From assembly GCF_002549775.1 (NCBI RefSeq), contig NZ_NMTR01000009.1, positions 1 to 64,000 of the forward strand: a stretch of 64,000 nucleotides of DNA, read 5' to 3'. Numbering within the stretch: position 1 is the first letter of the stretch; each line of letters opens with the position of its first letter. Positions 14,667 through 27,162 of the stretch are shown here, one piece after another. The notes under the pieces are model-generated. The model was not told the origin of the DNA and searched no databases. It was given only the letters and a program-made list of their open reading frames with translations. Made by a program: the position numbers and the translations under genes. The DNA comes from Faecalibacterium langellae (GTDB lineage: Bacteria; Bacillota; Clostridia; Oscillospirales; Ruminococcaceae).

Positions 14667-14883
14667 ATGATGTATTTGCTGCGCAAACATGATGTTGTCC
14701 TTCGGACAAATGATGATTGCCGCTTTGCGGCAAAATGATGTGTGCCTGCGGGCACATGAAAAATTGCGAGGGGCCCGCCCCGAGCGCATCATGGCCGCCG
14801 CAGGCGGCTGCATCATTTCCGCGCAAGCGGAAACATCATGCCCGAAGGGTGTCTCATGTTTGCCCAAAGGGCAAATACATCAT
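14667..14883. repeat. Hairpin array A (ATGATG / CATCAT spacers), gene-less
   Basis: Nine short hairpins with different stems. The first four are separated by ATGATG (14667, 14689, 14710, 14735) with stems TTTGC, TTGTCC, TTGCCGC, TGTGCC. A central GGGGC..GCCCC hairpin follows, then units ending in CATCAT (14787, 14811, 14834, 14878; one spacer is degraded) with stems GCCGCC, TTCCGC, CCC, TTTGCCC. Loops are TGC, TTC or TTT on the left and GCA, GAA or AAA on the right. It ends CATCATTCC just before the ribosome site of the next gene. No gene in this 340-bp gap. Confidence 0.9.
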
Positions 14884-22562: not shown

Positions 22563-23300
22563 ATGACATTGTTTTTGACCAGCAGCCCCAGCGGCTGCCC
22601 CTTTGAGCCGGGGCCGGACATCCCGGTGCTGGATACCCGCAACCACCTTGTGGCAAACCTGCGGGCCGTCTGGCCGGACCACGCGGTGCTGGGCCTTGCC
22701 ATTGCGGCAGACCCCCACGCCTATGAAGAAAACGACGAAATGTGCCGGGTGTTTTTGCAGAGCTTCGCAGACGCTCACCTGCCGCTGACCGACCTTATCC
22801 CCTGCGACGCCCGCAATCAGGACGAGATTGGCACCCTTTTGCCCCAGAGCGGCTTTGTGATGCTGTGCGGCGGGCATGTGCCCACCCAGAACCACTTCTT
22901 TGCCCGCATCGGGCTGGCCGGGCTGTTCCACAGCTACCACGGCATCGTGATGGGCGTGAGCGCCGGCAGCATGAATGCGGCCCGCATCGTCTATGCCGCA
23001 CCGGAAGAACCGGGCGAAGCCGCCGACCCGCACTATTCCCGCTGGCTGAACGGCCTGGGCCTGACCGAGACCCGCATCCTGCCGCACTACCAGTTCATCC
23101 GGGAGCATGTGCTCGACGGGCAGAAGGTGGAGGATATTGCCCTTGCCGACAGCAAAAAGCGGCACTTCCTCGCCCTGCCGGACGGCTCCTACATTCTGTG
23201 CGCCGACGGCAGCGAGGCGCTGTACGGCAAAGCATGGTACTTCGCGGACGGCACCATGGAGGAGATCAATGAAGATGAAGATGTGCTGCCGCTGAGATAA
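22563..23300 (+). CDS. Peptidase S51 / peptidase E-like protein
   Basis: 245 aa. Type-1 glutamine-amidotransferase-like fold with the nucleophile elbow GVSAGSMN (serine), preceded by VMLCGGHVPTQN, as in dipeptidase E, which cleaves Asp-X dipeptides. LPHYQFIREH may supply the catalytic histidine. Monocistronic with a weak -10 TAGAAT at 22518 and a strong terminator. Peptidase E is the best match; cyanophycinase-type activity is an alternative. Confidence 0.82.
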   Translation: MTLFLTSSPSGCPFEPGPDIPVLDTRNHLVANLRAVWPDHAVLGLAIAADPHAYEENDEMCRVFLQSFADAHLPLTDLIPCDARNQDEIGTLLPQSGFVMLCGGHVPTQNHFFARIGLAGLFHSYHGIVMGVSAGSMNAARIVYAAPEEPGEAADPHYSRWLNGLGLTETRILPHYQFIREHVLDGQKVEDIALADSKKRHFLALPDGSYILCADGSEALYGKAWYFADGTMEEINEDEDVLPLR

Positions 23301-23302
23301 CA

Positions 23303-23335
23303 AAAAAGAAGCACGCTTTTGCGTGCTTCTTTTTT
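23303..23335. terminator. Bidirectional terminator
   Basis: AAGAAGCACGC-TTTT-GCGTGCTTCTT with A and T runs on each side. Confidence 0.88.
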
Positions 23336-23340
23336 GTTAC

Positions 23341-23421
23341 ATGATGTTTCTGCTGCGCAGAAATGAGGTTGCTGCGCAATGATGTTTGCGCTGCGCGCAA
23401 AATGATGTGTGCTGGCGCACA
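23341..23421. repeat. Hairpin half-array B1 (ATGATG spacers)
   Basis: Four hairpins: TTTCTGC-TGC-GCAGAAA, TTGC-TGC-GCAA, TTTGCGC-TGC-GCGCAAA, TGTGC-TGGC-GCACA, separated by ATGATG (23341, 23379, 23402) and one ATGAGG. It lies immediately downstream of the four-helix-bundle gene and mirrors half-array B2 on its other side. Confidence 0.9.
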
Positions 23422-23433
23422 TTCAAAGTACGG

Positions 23434-23790
23434 TCAACTATGCGGCTTCTGTTTGGCGGTTCTGCAGGATGCAATCAGCAGCACTCGCAGCTCCGCGCAC
23501 TGTGCCCGCAGCTGCCGGAACTGCTGGTCAGGCAGATAGCCGGTACGAAATAACAGCTCCAGCCAATAATCTGTTTCATTTGCTTCTTTCAGTGCGATCT
23601 CCAGTTTGGAAACAAAATCGTCGCGGCTTTGCGCATAATGTACCTCACGGATATTTGCACCGATGGATGTACCGGAACGTCCGATCTGGTTTGCCATGAT
23701 AAATTCTTTTCTCATGCGCAGCGTCTTTGTCAATTCAATGATCTGTACCGCAAACTCCATGGAGCGTTCTGCCAGTTTATCTTCCCGCAT
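23434..23790 (-). CDS. Four-helix-bundle protein (23S intervening-sequence / bAvd-like family)
   Basis: 118 aa from the ATG five bases after AAGGAG; the longer reading runs into hairpins. The motif NQIGRSGTSIGANIREVHYAQSRDDFVSKLEIALKEANETDYWLELLFRTGYL is the hallmark of the small four-helix-bundle family first known from intervening sequences in 23S rRNA and related to Avd of diversity-generating retroelements. C-terminal end basic (RTAKQKPHS), fitting nucleic-acid contact. No rRNA, reverse transcriptase or variable repeat is nearby. It is enclosed by inverted hairpin half-arrays (23341-23421 and 23808-23888) and stands right after jetC. I infer it belongs to the hairpin element, not to the jet operon. 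Confidence 0.9.
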   Translation of the reverse strand: MREDKLAERSMEFAVQIIELTKTLRMRKEFIMANQIGRSGTSIGANIREVHYAQSRDDFVSKLEIALKEANETDYWLELLFRTGYLPDQQFRQLRAQCAELRVLLIASCRTAKQKPHS

Positions 23791-23807
23791 CGGTACTCCT
23801 TTTCTAT

Positions 23808-23888
23808 ACCCCGCAGGGCACATCATTTCCGGCGCAGCCGGAACATCATTGCGCATACAATGCGCACATCATTCCGCCGCAAGGCGAA
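23808..23888. repeat. Hairpin half-array B2 (CATCAT spacers)
   Basis: A partial CCC-CGCA-GGG unit, then TTCCGGC-GCA-GCCGGAA, TGCGCAT-ACA-ATGCGCA and an imperfect CGCC-GCAA-GGCG unit, separated by CATCAT (23821, 23844, 23867). The last spacer contains the jetC stop codon and the last hairpin is inside jetC coding sequence. Confidence 0.88.
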
Positions 23889-26800
23889 TAAAGGGCGCTA
23901 TTGCGTTGGTGTCGCCGTGGCGGACGATGGAGTAGGTGATGTCGCAGTAGGGCTGGATGGCGGTACTCTTTTCCACGGTGGAGATGAGCAGCACCTGCAG
24001 CTGCAGGCGGCGGAACAGCTCCATCATGGGGCGGATGCGGTCGCTGGTCATCTTGCTGAAGGCCTCGTCCAGCAGCACCAGACGGATGCTGTTCTCGCTC
24101 TTTTCGTAAATCTGCAGCAGAGACGCGCAGATGGCCACATAGAAGGGGGCCTGATTCTCGCCGCCGGAGGAGTCGCGGCTGACGCGGGAGAGGTATGCCT
24201 GCTGGCCGGTGACGCGGTTGGTCACTTTGATGTCGTAATCCAGATAGGTGCGGTAATCCACGTAATCCGAGAGGGTGGCACCGCCGGTGCGGCCCTCCTG
24301 CCGGGCGCGGGTGTTCTCGTCCACATCGGCCATGATCTTTTCCATCAGCGCGTCCACCTGCCGCTCGTAGGCCGGGTCGGCGGTGGCGGCAAGGTTGTCC
24401 AGCGAGTCGCCCTCCGTCATCTGCTGGTTGCCCTTATCCACGATGACCTGATAGAACGCGGCCAGCTGCGGGTCGCGGCTGGGCTCCAGCTCAAAGCGGT
24501 AGACCTCCTCGCCGTAGGTCAGCTGTTCCATCACCTTGTTCAGCTCCCGGAACTGCCGCCGGGCGTTGAAGATATCATCCTTCATGCGGAACAGAATGTC
24601 CTTGCGGAAACGGTCTTTGCAGTCGCGCTGGGCCTGCTCCAGACGGGCGGCGTAGCGTTCCAGGTCAATGCGCACAAGGCTCTCGTGCTGGGCGCGGTAC
24701 TGGTCCAGCCCCGCCAGACCCAGCGGGTAATCACAGACGTAGTGCTCGTTGTAGGCCTTCTGGGCGGGTTCCAGCGTGCCGGTCAGGTAGACGGCCAGCG
24801 CATCGTCCAGCTTGGCCTGTGCCTTTTCGGCGGCCTGCGCGGCGGCGCGGGGCTTGTCTGCCGGGGCAAGGGCAAGCATCCGGGAGCGGGCCAGCGGCTC
24901 CACCAGCGGGTGCGCGGCAAAGAAGCTCTTTGCGGCATCGGCGCTCTGCTGTGCCGTCTCCCCTGCCTTGGCCTGCTCCGCTTCGCAGGAAGCGATCTGC
25001 TTTTCGCACACGCGGATGTCGCCACCGGCCTGCTCCACGGCGGCACGGGCGGCCTCCCACGCGGCTTCGCGGGCTTCTTCCTCTTTGTAAAGCTGCTGCA
25101 GCAGCGGGTTCTCGCGGCACTCGGTGAGCTTTGCTTCCTGCTGGGCCACAGCCTTCTGTGCGGCAGTCAATGCGGCACGGGCATCCCACAGGGCGGCCAG
25201 TTCGTCCAGCGCGGTGCCGCGCAAAAGGGTCTGGTACTGGTTGTAGGCAGCTTTCAGGTTCTGCTCGGTTTGGGCGGCAGTGCGGGCCGTCTCGCCGAGG
25301 GCTTCCAGCTCCGCCGCCAGTGCACCGGCCCGGGCGCGGCGGGCGTCCAGACCAATATACCGCTGCGGTGTGCGCAGGCGTTCCAGACGGAAGGGGTGGT
25401 GGCGCAGAAGGTCCCGGGTGGCGCTGTCCGGGTACTGTTCCAGCGTATCGGGGGTGTCGCAGCAGACGATGCGGCCTAAGATCGTCTTGGCGTACTGCGC
25501 GGCCAGCGGGTTTTCGCTGGACACCTGCGCGGCAAGGCTGTCCGGGCCGTATTTATCCGCGCGGCGGTTGGCCTTGCGGATGCCCGGGGTGTCCAGCAGG
25601 CTGATGGGGCCTACCTTGTCCTTCAGAGCCACAAAGGCGCTCTTGGCGGCTTCGTAGTGGGCGGGCGGCACAAGGATATCAAAGCGGCGGTCGCCAAGGC
25701 AGGCTTCCACGCAGTCCTGCCAGCTCTCGTCCTCCACGTTCAGCAGTTCGCAGAAAATTTTCGCGTCCGGCTGCATGCCGCGGCTCTTGAGTTCGGCATT
25801 CACGGCGTCCCGCACGCGGGTGGCGGCGTCGCCGTGGGGGTAGACCCACTTGCCGCCGGAGACGGCGTCCAGCTCAGCACGCTTCGCGGCCTGCTCCTTC
25901 TGCAGGGCGGCAGTGTTCTGGCGGGCGGCAAAGTAGGCTTCTTCCAGCGGCTTTTCCTGCGCGGTGAGCCACTCGGTCAGCTGCGGCAGGGTGTCGGCGG
26001 TGAGTTCTTCGGCCTTGACGCCAGATGCAAAGCCGCTGCGGCGCAGCACGGCCAGCAGGCTGCCGGTGCGGGCAAGGGCGCTCTCGGCCTTTTCGGCCCT
26101 GCGGGCGGCGGCGTCCAGCGCCGTTTTGCGGCGGGAAAGCTCCTCGCTCAGGGCATCCAGTGCCCGGCCCTCGCCGCTGTCCCCGGCGGCGCTGTGGGCG
26201 GAAAGATAAGCCCGGCGGGCTTCGGCTTCGGCGTTTTTGGCATCGGCATAGCGGGCATTCAGGGTTTCCAGCTGACGGCGGCCCGCGTCCAGGCGCTCCT
26301 GCCAGACGTCCTGTTCCCCGGCATCGGCAGCGGCCCGTGCCAGCAGCGCCGCGCCCCGGTTCACAAGGGCCTGGGTCTGCTTTTCGGCGGCTTCGCGTCC
26401 AAAGGTCACGATCTGGTCCAGCGCATTGGCGCGGGTCTGGGCTTCGGCAAGCACGGCGTGCAGGTTTTCCAGCTCCAGCCGGTCGCCCTGTAGCGCGTCC
26501 AGATCCAGCTCCGGCTGGGGCAGGATGTACTGGTACAAAAACTCCCGGAAGTTGGGGATCTCGTCCATGCTGGTGCCCATCTGGAACACCTCATTGAACT
26601 TTTTGCCCAGCGGGCTGGACGCCCGCCCGATGCCCAGCGCGCGGCAGATGCGGTCCCGCGCTTCGCTGGGGCTGCGGGTGTAGGAAAGGCGTCCGGTCTC
26701 GGGCTTGAAGTCCTCCTTGGCGCTGGGCGCGCCGGTGTGCGGGTCGATAAAGGGCAGCTGTTCCAGCGTGATGCCGTCCTCCGAGAGATACCATGTCTGG

Positions 26801-27162
26801 TCGCCGGGATGCAGTTCCTGCATGGGGCCCTCAGACTCCACCCGCACCGCAATGACAAAGGTGGTGCGTTTGACGCTGTCGCTGAACTCTGCGCCGATGT
26901 AGGCCACCGTGTGGCCGGGGCGGCGGTAGGCATTCTCGCCGCGCTGCTTGGCGTGCACCGAGCCCTGCAGGGTGCGTCCGCTTTTCTTATTGCCCAGCGC
27001 ATTGAAGTTGCGGTTGGTGGTCAGGCAGTAGCGGATGGCATCCAGAATGGTGGTCTTGCCCACGGCGTTGACGCCGATCATATAGGTCAGCCGGGCACAG
27101 TCGAAGGTGACGTTTTCAAAGTTGTGCCAGTTGATGAGTTTCAGCCGCTTGAGTTCGATCAT
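23869..27162 (-). CDS. jetC: Wadjet-type SMC ATPase JetC
   Basis: 1097 aa. ABC/SMC head at the N-terminus with Walker A GVNAVGKT (30-37), long alternating coiled coils (~230-480 and ~600-900, many Ala/Glu/Arg), a hinge-like region in between, and a C-terminal head half with SSGGENQAPFYVAI and Walker B LVLLDEAF. The set matches JetC/MksB-type condensins of Wadjet plasmid-defence systems, which extrude DNA loops. Start overlaps the jetB stop (ATGA). The stop codon lies in a CATCAT spacer of the neighbouring hairpin array. No jetD nuclease follows. Confidence 0.92.
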   Translation of the reverse strand: MIELKRLKLINWHNFENVTFDCARLTYMIGVNAVGKTTILDAIRYCLTTNRNFNALGNKKSGRTLQGSVHAKQRGENAYRRPGHTVAYIGAEFSDSVKRTTFVIAVRVESEGPMQELHPGDQTWYLSEDGITLEQLPFIDPHTGAPSAKEDFKPETGRLSYTRSPSEARDRICRALGIGRASSPLGKKFNEVFQMGTSMDEIPNFREFLYQYILPQPELDLDALQGDRLELENLHAVLAEAQTRANALDQIVTFGREAAEKQTQALVNRGAALLARAAADAGEQDVWQERLDAGRRQLETLNARYADAKNAEAEARRAYLSAHSAAGDSGEGRALDALSEELSRRKTALDAAARRAEKAESALARTGSLLAVLRRSGFASGVKAEELTADTLPQLTEWLTAQEKPLEEAYFAARQNTAALQKEQAAKRAELDAVSGGKWVYPHGDAATRVRDAVNAELKSRGMQPDAKIFCELLNVEDESWQDCVEACLGDRRFDILVPPAHYEAAKSAFVALKDKVGPISLLDTPGIRKANRRADKYGPDSLAAQVSSENPLAAQYAKTILGRIVCCDTPDTLEQYPDSATRDLLRHHPFRLERLRTPQRYIGLDARRARAGALAAELEALGETARTAAQTEQNLKAAYNQYQTLLRGTALDELAALWDARAALTAAQKAVAQQEAKLTECRENPLLQQLYKEEEAREAAWEAARAAVEQAGGDIRVCEKQIASCEAEQAKAGETAQQSADAAKSFFAAHPLVEPLARSRMLALAPADKPRAAAQAAEKAQAKLDDALAVYLTGTLEPAQKAYNEHYVCDYPLGLAGLDQYRAQHESLVRIDLERYAARLEQAQRDCKDRFRKDILFRMKDDIFNARRQFRELNKVMEQLTYGEEVYRFELEPSRDPQLAAFYQVIVDKGNQQMTEGDSLDNLAATADPAYERQVDALMEKIMADVDENTRARQEGRTGGATLSDYVDYRTYLDYDIKVTNRVTGQQAYLSRVSRDSSGGENQAPFYVAICASLLQIYEKSENSIRLVLLDEAFSKMTSDRIRPMMELFRRLQLQVLLISTVEKSTAIQPYCDITYSIVRHGDTNAIAPFIRLAAE

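What the first reader, a model, noticed from the sequence alone, without database searches (positions are those of the whole stretch)
23341..23888. Four-helix-bundle gene enclosed by mirrored hairpin half-arrays: candidate new mobile or RNA-structured element
Seen: left of the gene are four perfect hairpins separated by ATGATG with TGC-type loops; right of it are hairpins separated by CATCAT, the reverse complement, with GCA-type loops. Stems differ in sequence and length between units yet always pair, so pairing, not sequence, is kept, while the 6-bp spacer is fixed. Known: four-helix-bundle proteins of this family occur in intervening sequences of 23S rRNA, which also begin and end in hairpins, and Avd relatives bind nucleic acid. 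Inference: gene plus arrays form one element, the protein perhaps recognising the spacer-hairpin repeat in DNA or RNA. Units may be gained or swapped individually.
Basis: partly seen in the sequence, partly recalled or inferred. Interest (0 to 1): 0.92.

Follow-up and report, generated by a model that had tools for sequence, protein, structure and literature searches.

The report
Mirrored-repeat mobile element with helix-bundle gene
A small bacterial gene of unknown function sits between two mirror-image arrays of short repeats that are present, emptied of the gene or absent at the same place in sister species, and similar arrays flank this gene family in distant bacteria, which points to a little-noticed kind of mobile DNA.

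Summary
A PF05635 gene (23S rRNA intervening-sequence protein, IVP) lies between a four-hairpin half-array with ATGATG-type spacers and its mirror with CATCAT spacers, next to jetC. I found 10 further two-sided elements without a gene and 4 solo halves in this genome. At the focal site one sister species has the arrays without the gene, one a half-array remnant, one no array. At another site 19 of 26 orthologues are plainly empty. So it is a mobile, MITE-like element. The spacer is one form of a wider signature: in relatives and in several other phyla IVP genes are flanked by arrays of a 7-nt repeat, and where both sides carry one, the left 7-mer matches the reverse complement of the right in 31 of 35 loci. 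Of 167 loci, 67 lie just downstream of a tRNA or tmRNA on the same strand, none opposite. A published 23S rRNA IVS (Coxiella) has the same 7-mers. Best reading: IVP is the end-binding mobility protein of a minimal element, and the hairpin array an elaborated 7-mer array. Mobility is well supported; IVP's role is inferred; the chemistry is unknown; arrays also occur in genomes without IVP.

The parts
23298..23339 (.). perfect 19-bp terminator-like palindrome abutting the left end (in tRNA-linked relatives a similar palindrome precedes the array)
   Evidence: relatives
23341..23421 (+). left half-array: four hairpins with spacers ATGATG, ATGAGG, ATGATG, ATGATG
23434..23790 (-). IVP gene, 118 aa, PF05635 (four-helix bundle; solved relative 2rld)
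   Evidence: E 3.1e-29; 2rld E 2.5e-33
23807..23888 (-). right half-array, mirror image: one degenerate and three good hairpins, spacers CATCAT on the + strand; outermost hairpin overlaps the end of jetC
14667..14883 (.). gene-free element of the same family (near-identical second copy at G000 C3:78977-79126 and flanks)
31950..32125 (.). gene-free element of the same family, 4+4 spacers; same place and orientation in G017

Best explanation
The focal feature is a small mobile element. Its ends are mirrored arrays of a 7-nt repeat (here AATGATG, each copy separated from the next by a hairpin) and its only gene is an IVP. Such elements settle just downstream of genes (stop codons, tRNA and tmRNA 3' ends). 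Shown by comparison: dispersed copies, orthologous sites without the element, versions without the gene, duplication of a unit with sharp borders, inversion of whole elements. Inferred: the IVP, whose solved relatives have five chains and which resembles the Avd protein of diversity-generating retroelements, binds the 7-mers, brings the two mirrored ends together and promotes copying, with host replication or repair supplying some or all of the chemistry; gene-free copies would move in trans. Also inferred: IVP depends on read-through from the upstream gene, which would explain the strand bias; and the clean, fast-changing hairpins are kept by DNA fold-back copying or correction rather than by selection on RNA.
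For: Dispersed family: 10 two-sided and 4 solo elements besides the focal one. Sites without the element: 19 of 26 orthologues with 45 bp or less between flanks; focal site in three sister species: arrays without gene (G027), remnant (G028), none (G030). Near-identical copies with different flanks, L033/L035. Paralogous tRNA-linked units with sharp borders, L087/L088 and L111/L113. Elements inverted relative to flanks at 2 of 5 orthologous sites. Period-7 signal upstream of IVP; arrays at 69 of 84 and 63 of 78 loci; mirrored 7-mers at 31 of 35 loci. 7-mer distance follows IVP identity, Mantel r -0.33, p 0.0005. Same strand as the upstream tRNA/tmRNA 67 to 0, as the nearest upstream ORF elsewhere 64 to 8. 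No recurrent partner gene. Two Avd-like members lack arrays.
Against: No catalytic activity is known for IVP and none was tested. G017 and G030 have arrays but no PF05635 match, so arrays do not need a resident IVP now. 15 of 84 and 15 of 78 loci failed the array test, and 9 of 17 printed non-clostridial loci are among them. The Mantel signal is partly descent; among pairs under 60% identity it is weaker (r -0.18, p 0.03). The strand bias could come from selection for expression. Empty sites do not show direction: loss cannot be told from gain at a single site. Recombinase or reverse-transcriptase genes elsewhere in the genome were not searched beyond Y1.
Confidence: 0.5

Rival explanations
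1. The arrays are IVP-independent repeats (MITE- or REP-like), moved by an unidentified enzyme or by replication template switching, and IVP is a passenger gene often captured between them.
For: Gene-free elements outnumber the gene-bearing one; G017 and G030 have arrays and no IVP match; arrays also enclose other small genes.
Against: Arrays flank IVP genes in many distant genomes with different 7-mers; 7-mer and IVP co-vary; no recurrent enzyme beside them; only a partial Y1 match in the genome.
Confidence: 0.27
2. Retroelement-like: the element moves through its transcript with a reverse transcriptase acting in trans, IVP playing the part that Avd plays in diversity-generating retroelements.
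For: IVP resembles Avd (PMC10053308, passages read); insertion on the transcribed strand of upstream genes.
Against: Stems show almost no G.T pairs; no reverse transcriptase seen among the focal neighbours; genome-wide search for one was not made.
Confidence: 0.12
3. Regulatory structure: the arrays are RNA or DNA control sites (attenuator, mRNA-stabilising stem, IVP autoregulation) and not transposon ends.
For: Terminator palindromes next to the arrays; the core repeats a terminator or first-hairpin arm in tRNA-linked copies, allowing alternative folds.
Against: Sites without the element, duplicated units, inversions and gene-free copies.
Confidence: 0.08

Closest known systems
23S rRNA intervening sequences (IVS), e.g. 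Coxiella burnetii (PMC4990558, passages read)
   Same: IVP (S23p) ORF; terminal inverted repeats; tandem 7-mers directly before the ORF, variable in number between strains
   Different: Focal element lies between protein genes, not in rRNA; its 7-mers are interrupted by hairpins; gene-free copies are dispersed; many relatives sit behind tRNA genes
REP / REPtron elements with RAYT transposases (PMC3733652, passages read)
   Same: Short palindromes with a fixed tag, dispersed between genes; inverted copies flank a gene
   Different: Tag is ATGATG, not GTAG; enclosed gene is PF05635, not a tyrosine transposase; stems differ between units; conserved 4+4 layout
Bacterial heptamer arrays: TAACTGA (PMC4679880, abstract and passages read) and GGGAATC / GGGGA(C/T)T (PMC4692102, passages read)
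   Same: Intergenic tandem 7-mers; inverted pairs reported in Xanthomonas; mobile origin raised but no mechanism named
   Different: The passages I read do not mention PF05635; their genomes were not tested here
Avd of diversity-generating retroelements
   Same: Same four-helix superfamily (PMC10053308, passages read)
   Different: No RT or template/variable repeat seen beside the focal gene; Avd-like members here (L136, L137) lack arrays and the polar residues shared by 12 aligned IVPs
Integron gene cassettes (recalled, no call)
   Same: Some tRNA-linked loci show structured arrays between small varied genes
   Different: No integrase or attC consensus was looked for

Membership tests
23S rRNA IVS | PF05635 / S23p ORF | tested here: met
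   E 3.1e-29
23S rRNA IVS | terminal inverted repeats | tested here: met
   arms 23373-23414 / 23814-23855, 81% complementary
23S rRNA IVS | located inside an rRNA gene | tested here: not met
   lies between jetC and an S51 peptidase gene
23S rRNA IVS | tandem 7-mers before the ORF | tested here: inconclusive
   AATGATG copies are separated by hairpins in the focal element; plain tandem 7-mers in many relatives
23S rRNA IVS | excision by RNase III | not testable with these tools
   needs RNA
REP/RAYT | GTAG tag on the palindromes | tested here: not met
   spacers ATGATG, ATGAGG, CATCAT
REP/RAYT | RAYT (Y1/HUH) transposase in the element or genome | tested here: not met
   enclosed gene is PF05635; genome has one partial Y1_Tnp match, profile positions 88-121 of 121, in an 88-aa frame
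REP/RAYT | dispersed gene-free palindromic copies | tested here: met
MITE-like element | short, gene-free, inverted-repeat ends, several copies, sites without it in relatives | tested here: met
MITE-like element | target-site duplication | tested here: inconclusive
   none evident by eye at the C2 site or at L033/L035
DGR Avd | neighbouring reverse transcriptase and repeats | tested here: not met
   no such neighbour at the focal locus; genome not searched for RT
Integron cassette array | IntI integrase and attC sites | not tested
   no search made

The most novel reading that the evidence does not exclude
IVP (PF05635) proteins are the dedicated mobility proteins of a phylum-spanning class of minimal mobile elements: one protein of about 115 aa plus mirrored 7-mer arrays, settling on the 3' side of genes and tRNAs. 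Gene-free derivatives of this class would account for many unexplained heptamer and hairpin arrays of bacteria, and 23S rRNA IVSs would be its rRNA-resident members. It would be a transposition system without any known transposase fold.
Probability: 0.38. Interest if true: 0.93.

Novelty: new variant of a known kind. Interest (0 to 1): 0.82.

Why it matters
IVSs with this protein have been known for over 25 years without an agreed function (PMC4990558, passage read), and bacterial heptamer arrays have been described without a mechanism (PMC4679880, abstract). Finding the protein together with mirrored 7-mer arrays in tRNA-linked, operon-internal and gene-bearing settings, plus gene-free copies, gives one testable hypothesis for both. 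It also warns that four-helix-bundle genes seen inside defence operons (here after jetC; on plasmids between hsdS and hsdR, and between a DISARM and a BREX gene) may be insertions rather than defence components.

Tried and rejected
Rfam: no match to any family reached its gathering score around the arrays. RAYT origin: set aside for lack of an intact Y1 gene. Phage origin: 2 of 50,697 phage records hold a relative, both unannotated faecal sequences; plasmids 27 of 72,556. Fixed cargo or partner: 435 neighbouring ORFs gave no cluster above 5 ORFs in 3 loci. An ungapped mirror test (55 of 87 loci beat 20 shuffles) misses hairpin arrays, so a spacer-chain test was added; that one misses degenerate spacers (L084 and L091 look positive by eye). 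Compensatory change at orthologous arrays: 18 pairs changed on both sides, 21 on one, 231 unchanged, 71 broken, 44 gapped over all rows; many broken pairs look replaced or misaligned, and L280 was entered in the orientation of its flanks although its element is inverted, so I do not lean on these counts. A first tRNA scan (13 of 87 and 2 of 80; far control 7 tRNA genes in 118 stretches) under-counted against the ARAGORN tool and was replaced, which has no far control of its own.

Selection: of 94 places listed, 87 were analysed (window included); the 7 dropped were below the family cut-off, while one other sub-threshold place (L083) was kept. The place list was cut short, so the number of elements in the genome is a minimum. 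In one search, 27 of the 28 genomes with a match were used; G018 was split over two contigs and left out, as was a second, weak G011 place.

Literature: the nine searches (open-licence PMC library) listed no paper that I recognised as tying PF05635 to mirrored heptamers outside rRNA; only listings and the passages named were seen, so this is not proof of absence. PMC11270868 (passage read) reports the IVP ORF in 16S and 23S insertions of CPR bacteria and calls it functionally uncharacterised. PMC10910872 (figure legend passage) lists IVP among CRISPR-adaptation associations. PMC8700078 and PMC5524665 (passages) mention four helix bundle genes only as annotation.

Full report
WHAT IS THERE. At 23341-23888 a PF05635 gene (23S rRNA intervening-sequence protein, IVP; minus strand 23434-23790, 118 aa) is enclosed by two mirrored hairpin half-arrays. 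The left half reads spacer-hairpin four times (spacers ATGATG, ATGAGG, ATGATG, ATGATG); the right half is its mirror with CATCAT. The innermost right hairpin is degenerate. The outermost right hairpin is also the end of jetC, whose stop codon lies in the last spacer. A perfect 19-bp terminator-like palindrome abuts the left end.

IT IS ONE OF A FAMILY IN THIS GENOME. ATGATG-N-ATGATG-N-ATGATG occurs 21 times forward and 20 times reverse, against 0 and 0 for the backwards control. Some of those hits are coding, but reading the places listed (a cut list) gave, besides the focal one, 10 two-sided elements (L032-L037, L039-L041, L044) and 4 solo halves (L038, L042, L043, L045). By count of exact spacers seven of the ten are 4+4, two 3+4 and one 5+4 through an overlapping copy; in L039 one of the four left copies lies in the upstream coding sequence. 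Their cores are too short, about 30-130 bp, for an IVP gene. IVP occurs once in the genome. In 31 genomes of the genus a match over the family cut-off was found only in G000 and a weaker one in G003; true arrays, by my reading of the listed hits, only in G000, G017 and G030. So arrays persist in two species without an IVP match.

IT MOVES. (a) Site of a gene-free copy on C2 (L032): 27 orthologous sites were aligned and only G000 has the array. Of the other 26, 19 have 45 bp or less between the flanks (17 bp in G013, G029, G009 and G017, flanks 91-92% identical) and 7 hold other sequence of 96-257 bp without such an array. In G000 the terminal ATGATG supplies the stop codon of the upstream gene. 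(b) Focal site: three sister species have an 88% identical S51 gene beside jetC. G027 has the arrays at the same place without the IVP gene and with fewer hairpins; G028 keeps a right-half remnant beside other sequence; G030 has no array and ends jetC with different codons. (c) Two copies on one contig (L033, L035) are nearly identical inside, apart from a deletion joining two hairpins in L035, and differ outside. (d) At 5 orthologous G000/G017 sites two elements have the same orientation, two are inverted relative to their flanks (L280 against L037; L278 against L035, here over 95 bp) and one does not align while its flanks do. Gain cannot be told from loss at any one site.

THE GENERAL RULE. 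Upstream of IVP the sequence repeats with period 7: mean best self-identity 0.755 at lag 7 against 0.48-0.56 at lags 4-6 and 8-12, 0.482 in shuffles and 0.475 in far controls (86 loci, 77 far controls). A 7-mer array or a mirrored hairpin array was found at 69 of 84 and 63 of 78 loci with enough upstream sequence. Far-upstream controls gave 1 of 76 and 2 of 69 for the 7-mer test, and 0 of 26 and 3 of 68 for the hairpin test. Among the 15 misses of the first set are the Avd-like L136 and L137. At 35 non-tRNA loci with 7-mer arrays on both sides, the left 7-mer is within one mismatch of the reverse complement of the right one in 31, against 11% of pairs between loci. Beyond Clostridia, 17 loci were printed: 8 had passed the array test, among them Bacteroidota, a Verrucomicrobium and Sulfurovum; 9 had not, most of these with degenerate 7-mers by eye and L157 with none. 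Seven plasmid-borne relatives (Treponema, two Nostoc, Dolichospermum, Planktothrix, Monoglobus, Bernardetia) all have 7-mers next to the gene by eye, degenerate in Monoglobus, where the IVP frame is also broken. In several relatives of the window, as here, the repeats are separated by hairpins, and the spacer differs from element to element (ATGATG, TGAAAT, TGATAT, GTGATG) with its reverse complement in the other half.

TARGETS. At 34 of 87 and 33 of 80 loci a tRNA or tmRNA 3' end lies within 400 bp upstream on the same strand; opposite strand 0. At loci without one that have an ORF within 400 bp upstream, this ORF is on the same strand in 64 and opposite in 8. Paralogous units in one genome match from just around the tRNA CCA to just past the IVP stop (L087/L088, 88%; L111/L113, 85%), then diverge. 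Larger stretches show tRNA-array-IVP-gene-array orders and arrays around other small genes in some of the 14 mapped. Neighbouring genes form no recurrent family.

HOW IT MAY WORK. Shown by comparison: mirrored arrays mark the ends; units duplicate, invert and are missing from orthologous sites; the gene can be missing. Inferred: IVP binds the 7-mers. The support is that 7-mer distance follows IVP identity (Mantel r -0.33, p 0.0005, 61 loci; pairs under 60% identity r -0.18, p 0.03), though descent contributes. Solved relatives 2rld and 2gsc have five chains each, and a toroidal pentamer is described for the Xanthomonas protein (PMC4990558, passage read). Twelve aligned IVPs share polar residues that the two Avd-like members lack. 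In 135 hairpin units of 38 arrays the stems hold 2 G.T, 1 A.C and 6 other mismatches (the finder favours clean stems), which suggests that pairing is kept at the DNA level, for example by fold-back synthesis (mechanism recalled, not tested). Folded as single-stranded DNA, the gene-free copy pairs left spacers with right spacers as well as forming hairpins. The chemistry is unknown.

COMPARISON. The Coxiella 23S IVS has the same anatomy: S23p ORF, terminal inverted repeats, tandem 7-mers before the ORF that vary in number (PMC4990558, passages read). By location the focal element is not an rRNA IVS, and by enzyme it is not a REPtron. Published heptamer arrays in Beggiatoaceae, Cyanobacteria, Bacteroidetes and Xanthomonas (PMC4679880, abstract and passages; PMC4692102, passages) could be derivatives; [quoted passage not shown] I did not test their genomes.

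VERDICT. Mobile element: about 0.85. IVP as its end-binding mobility protein: about 0.5. New variant of a known kind (IVS), with a fair chance that the whole class deserves its own name. After the recount the odds of the boldest reading were set at 0.38 instead of 0.40, because 9 of 17 printed non-clostridial loci had failed the automatic array test.

Noticed in passing
window 23869-29217: Wadjet-like genes jetA, a DUF4194 (jetB-like) and an SMC-like (jetC-like) gene lie next to the element; no JetD_C match exists in the genome.
   Followed up: partly
G000 C2 site and orthologues (L218-L244): The intergenic site that holds the gene-free element in G000 holds other repeat-like sequences of 96-257 bp in 7 of 26 sister species, as if it were an insertion hot spot.
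   Followed up: no
L286, L288, L291, L293, L298: tRNA-array-gene-array orders: arrays behind tRNA genes enclose small varied genes as well as IVP, rather like a cassette island.
   Followed up: partly
L060, L068, L102; L075, L104, L105, L161: IVP elements between what look like grpE and dnaK, and behind what looks like argC, in different genera (argC also in Bacteroides): recurrent insertion or long inheritance. Gene names by eye.
   Followed up: no
L305, L306: Four helix bundle genes between a DISARM and a BREX gene (Planktothrix plasmid) and between hsdS and hsdR (Monoglobus plasmid, frame broken).
   Followed up: no
L125-L130, L111, L113: In many tRNA-linked elements the core repeats an arm of the preceding terminator-like palindrome, so two alternative hairpins are possible (by eye).
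   Followed up: no
L037 / L280, L035 / L278: Whole elements inverted in place between sister species.
   Followed up: partly
L047 (G000 C66:75392-75487): A partial Y1 transposase match in an 88-aa frame.
   Followed up: no
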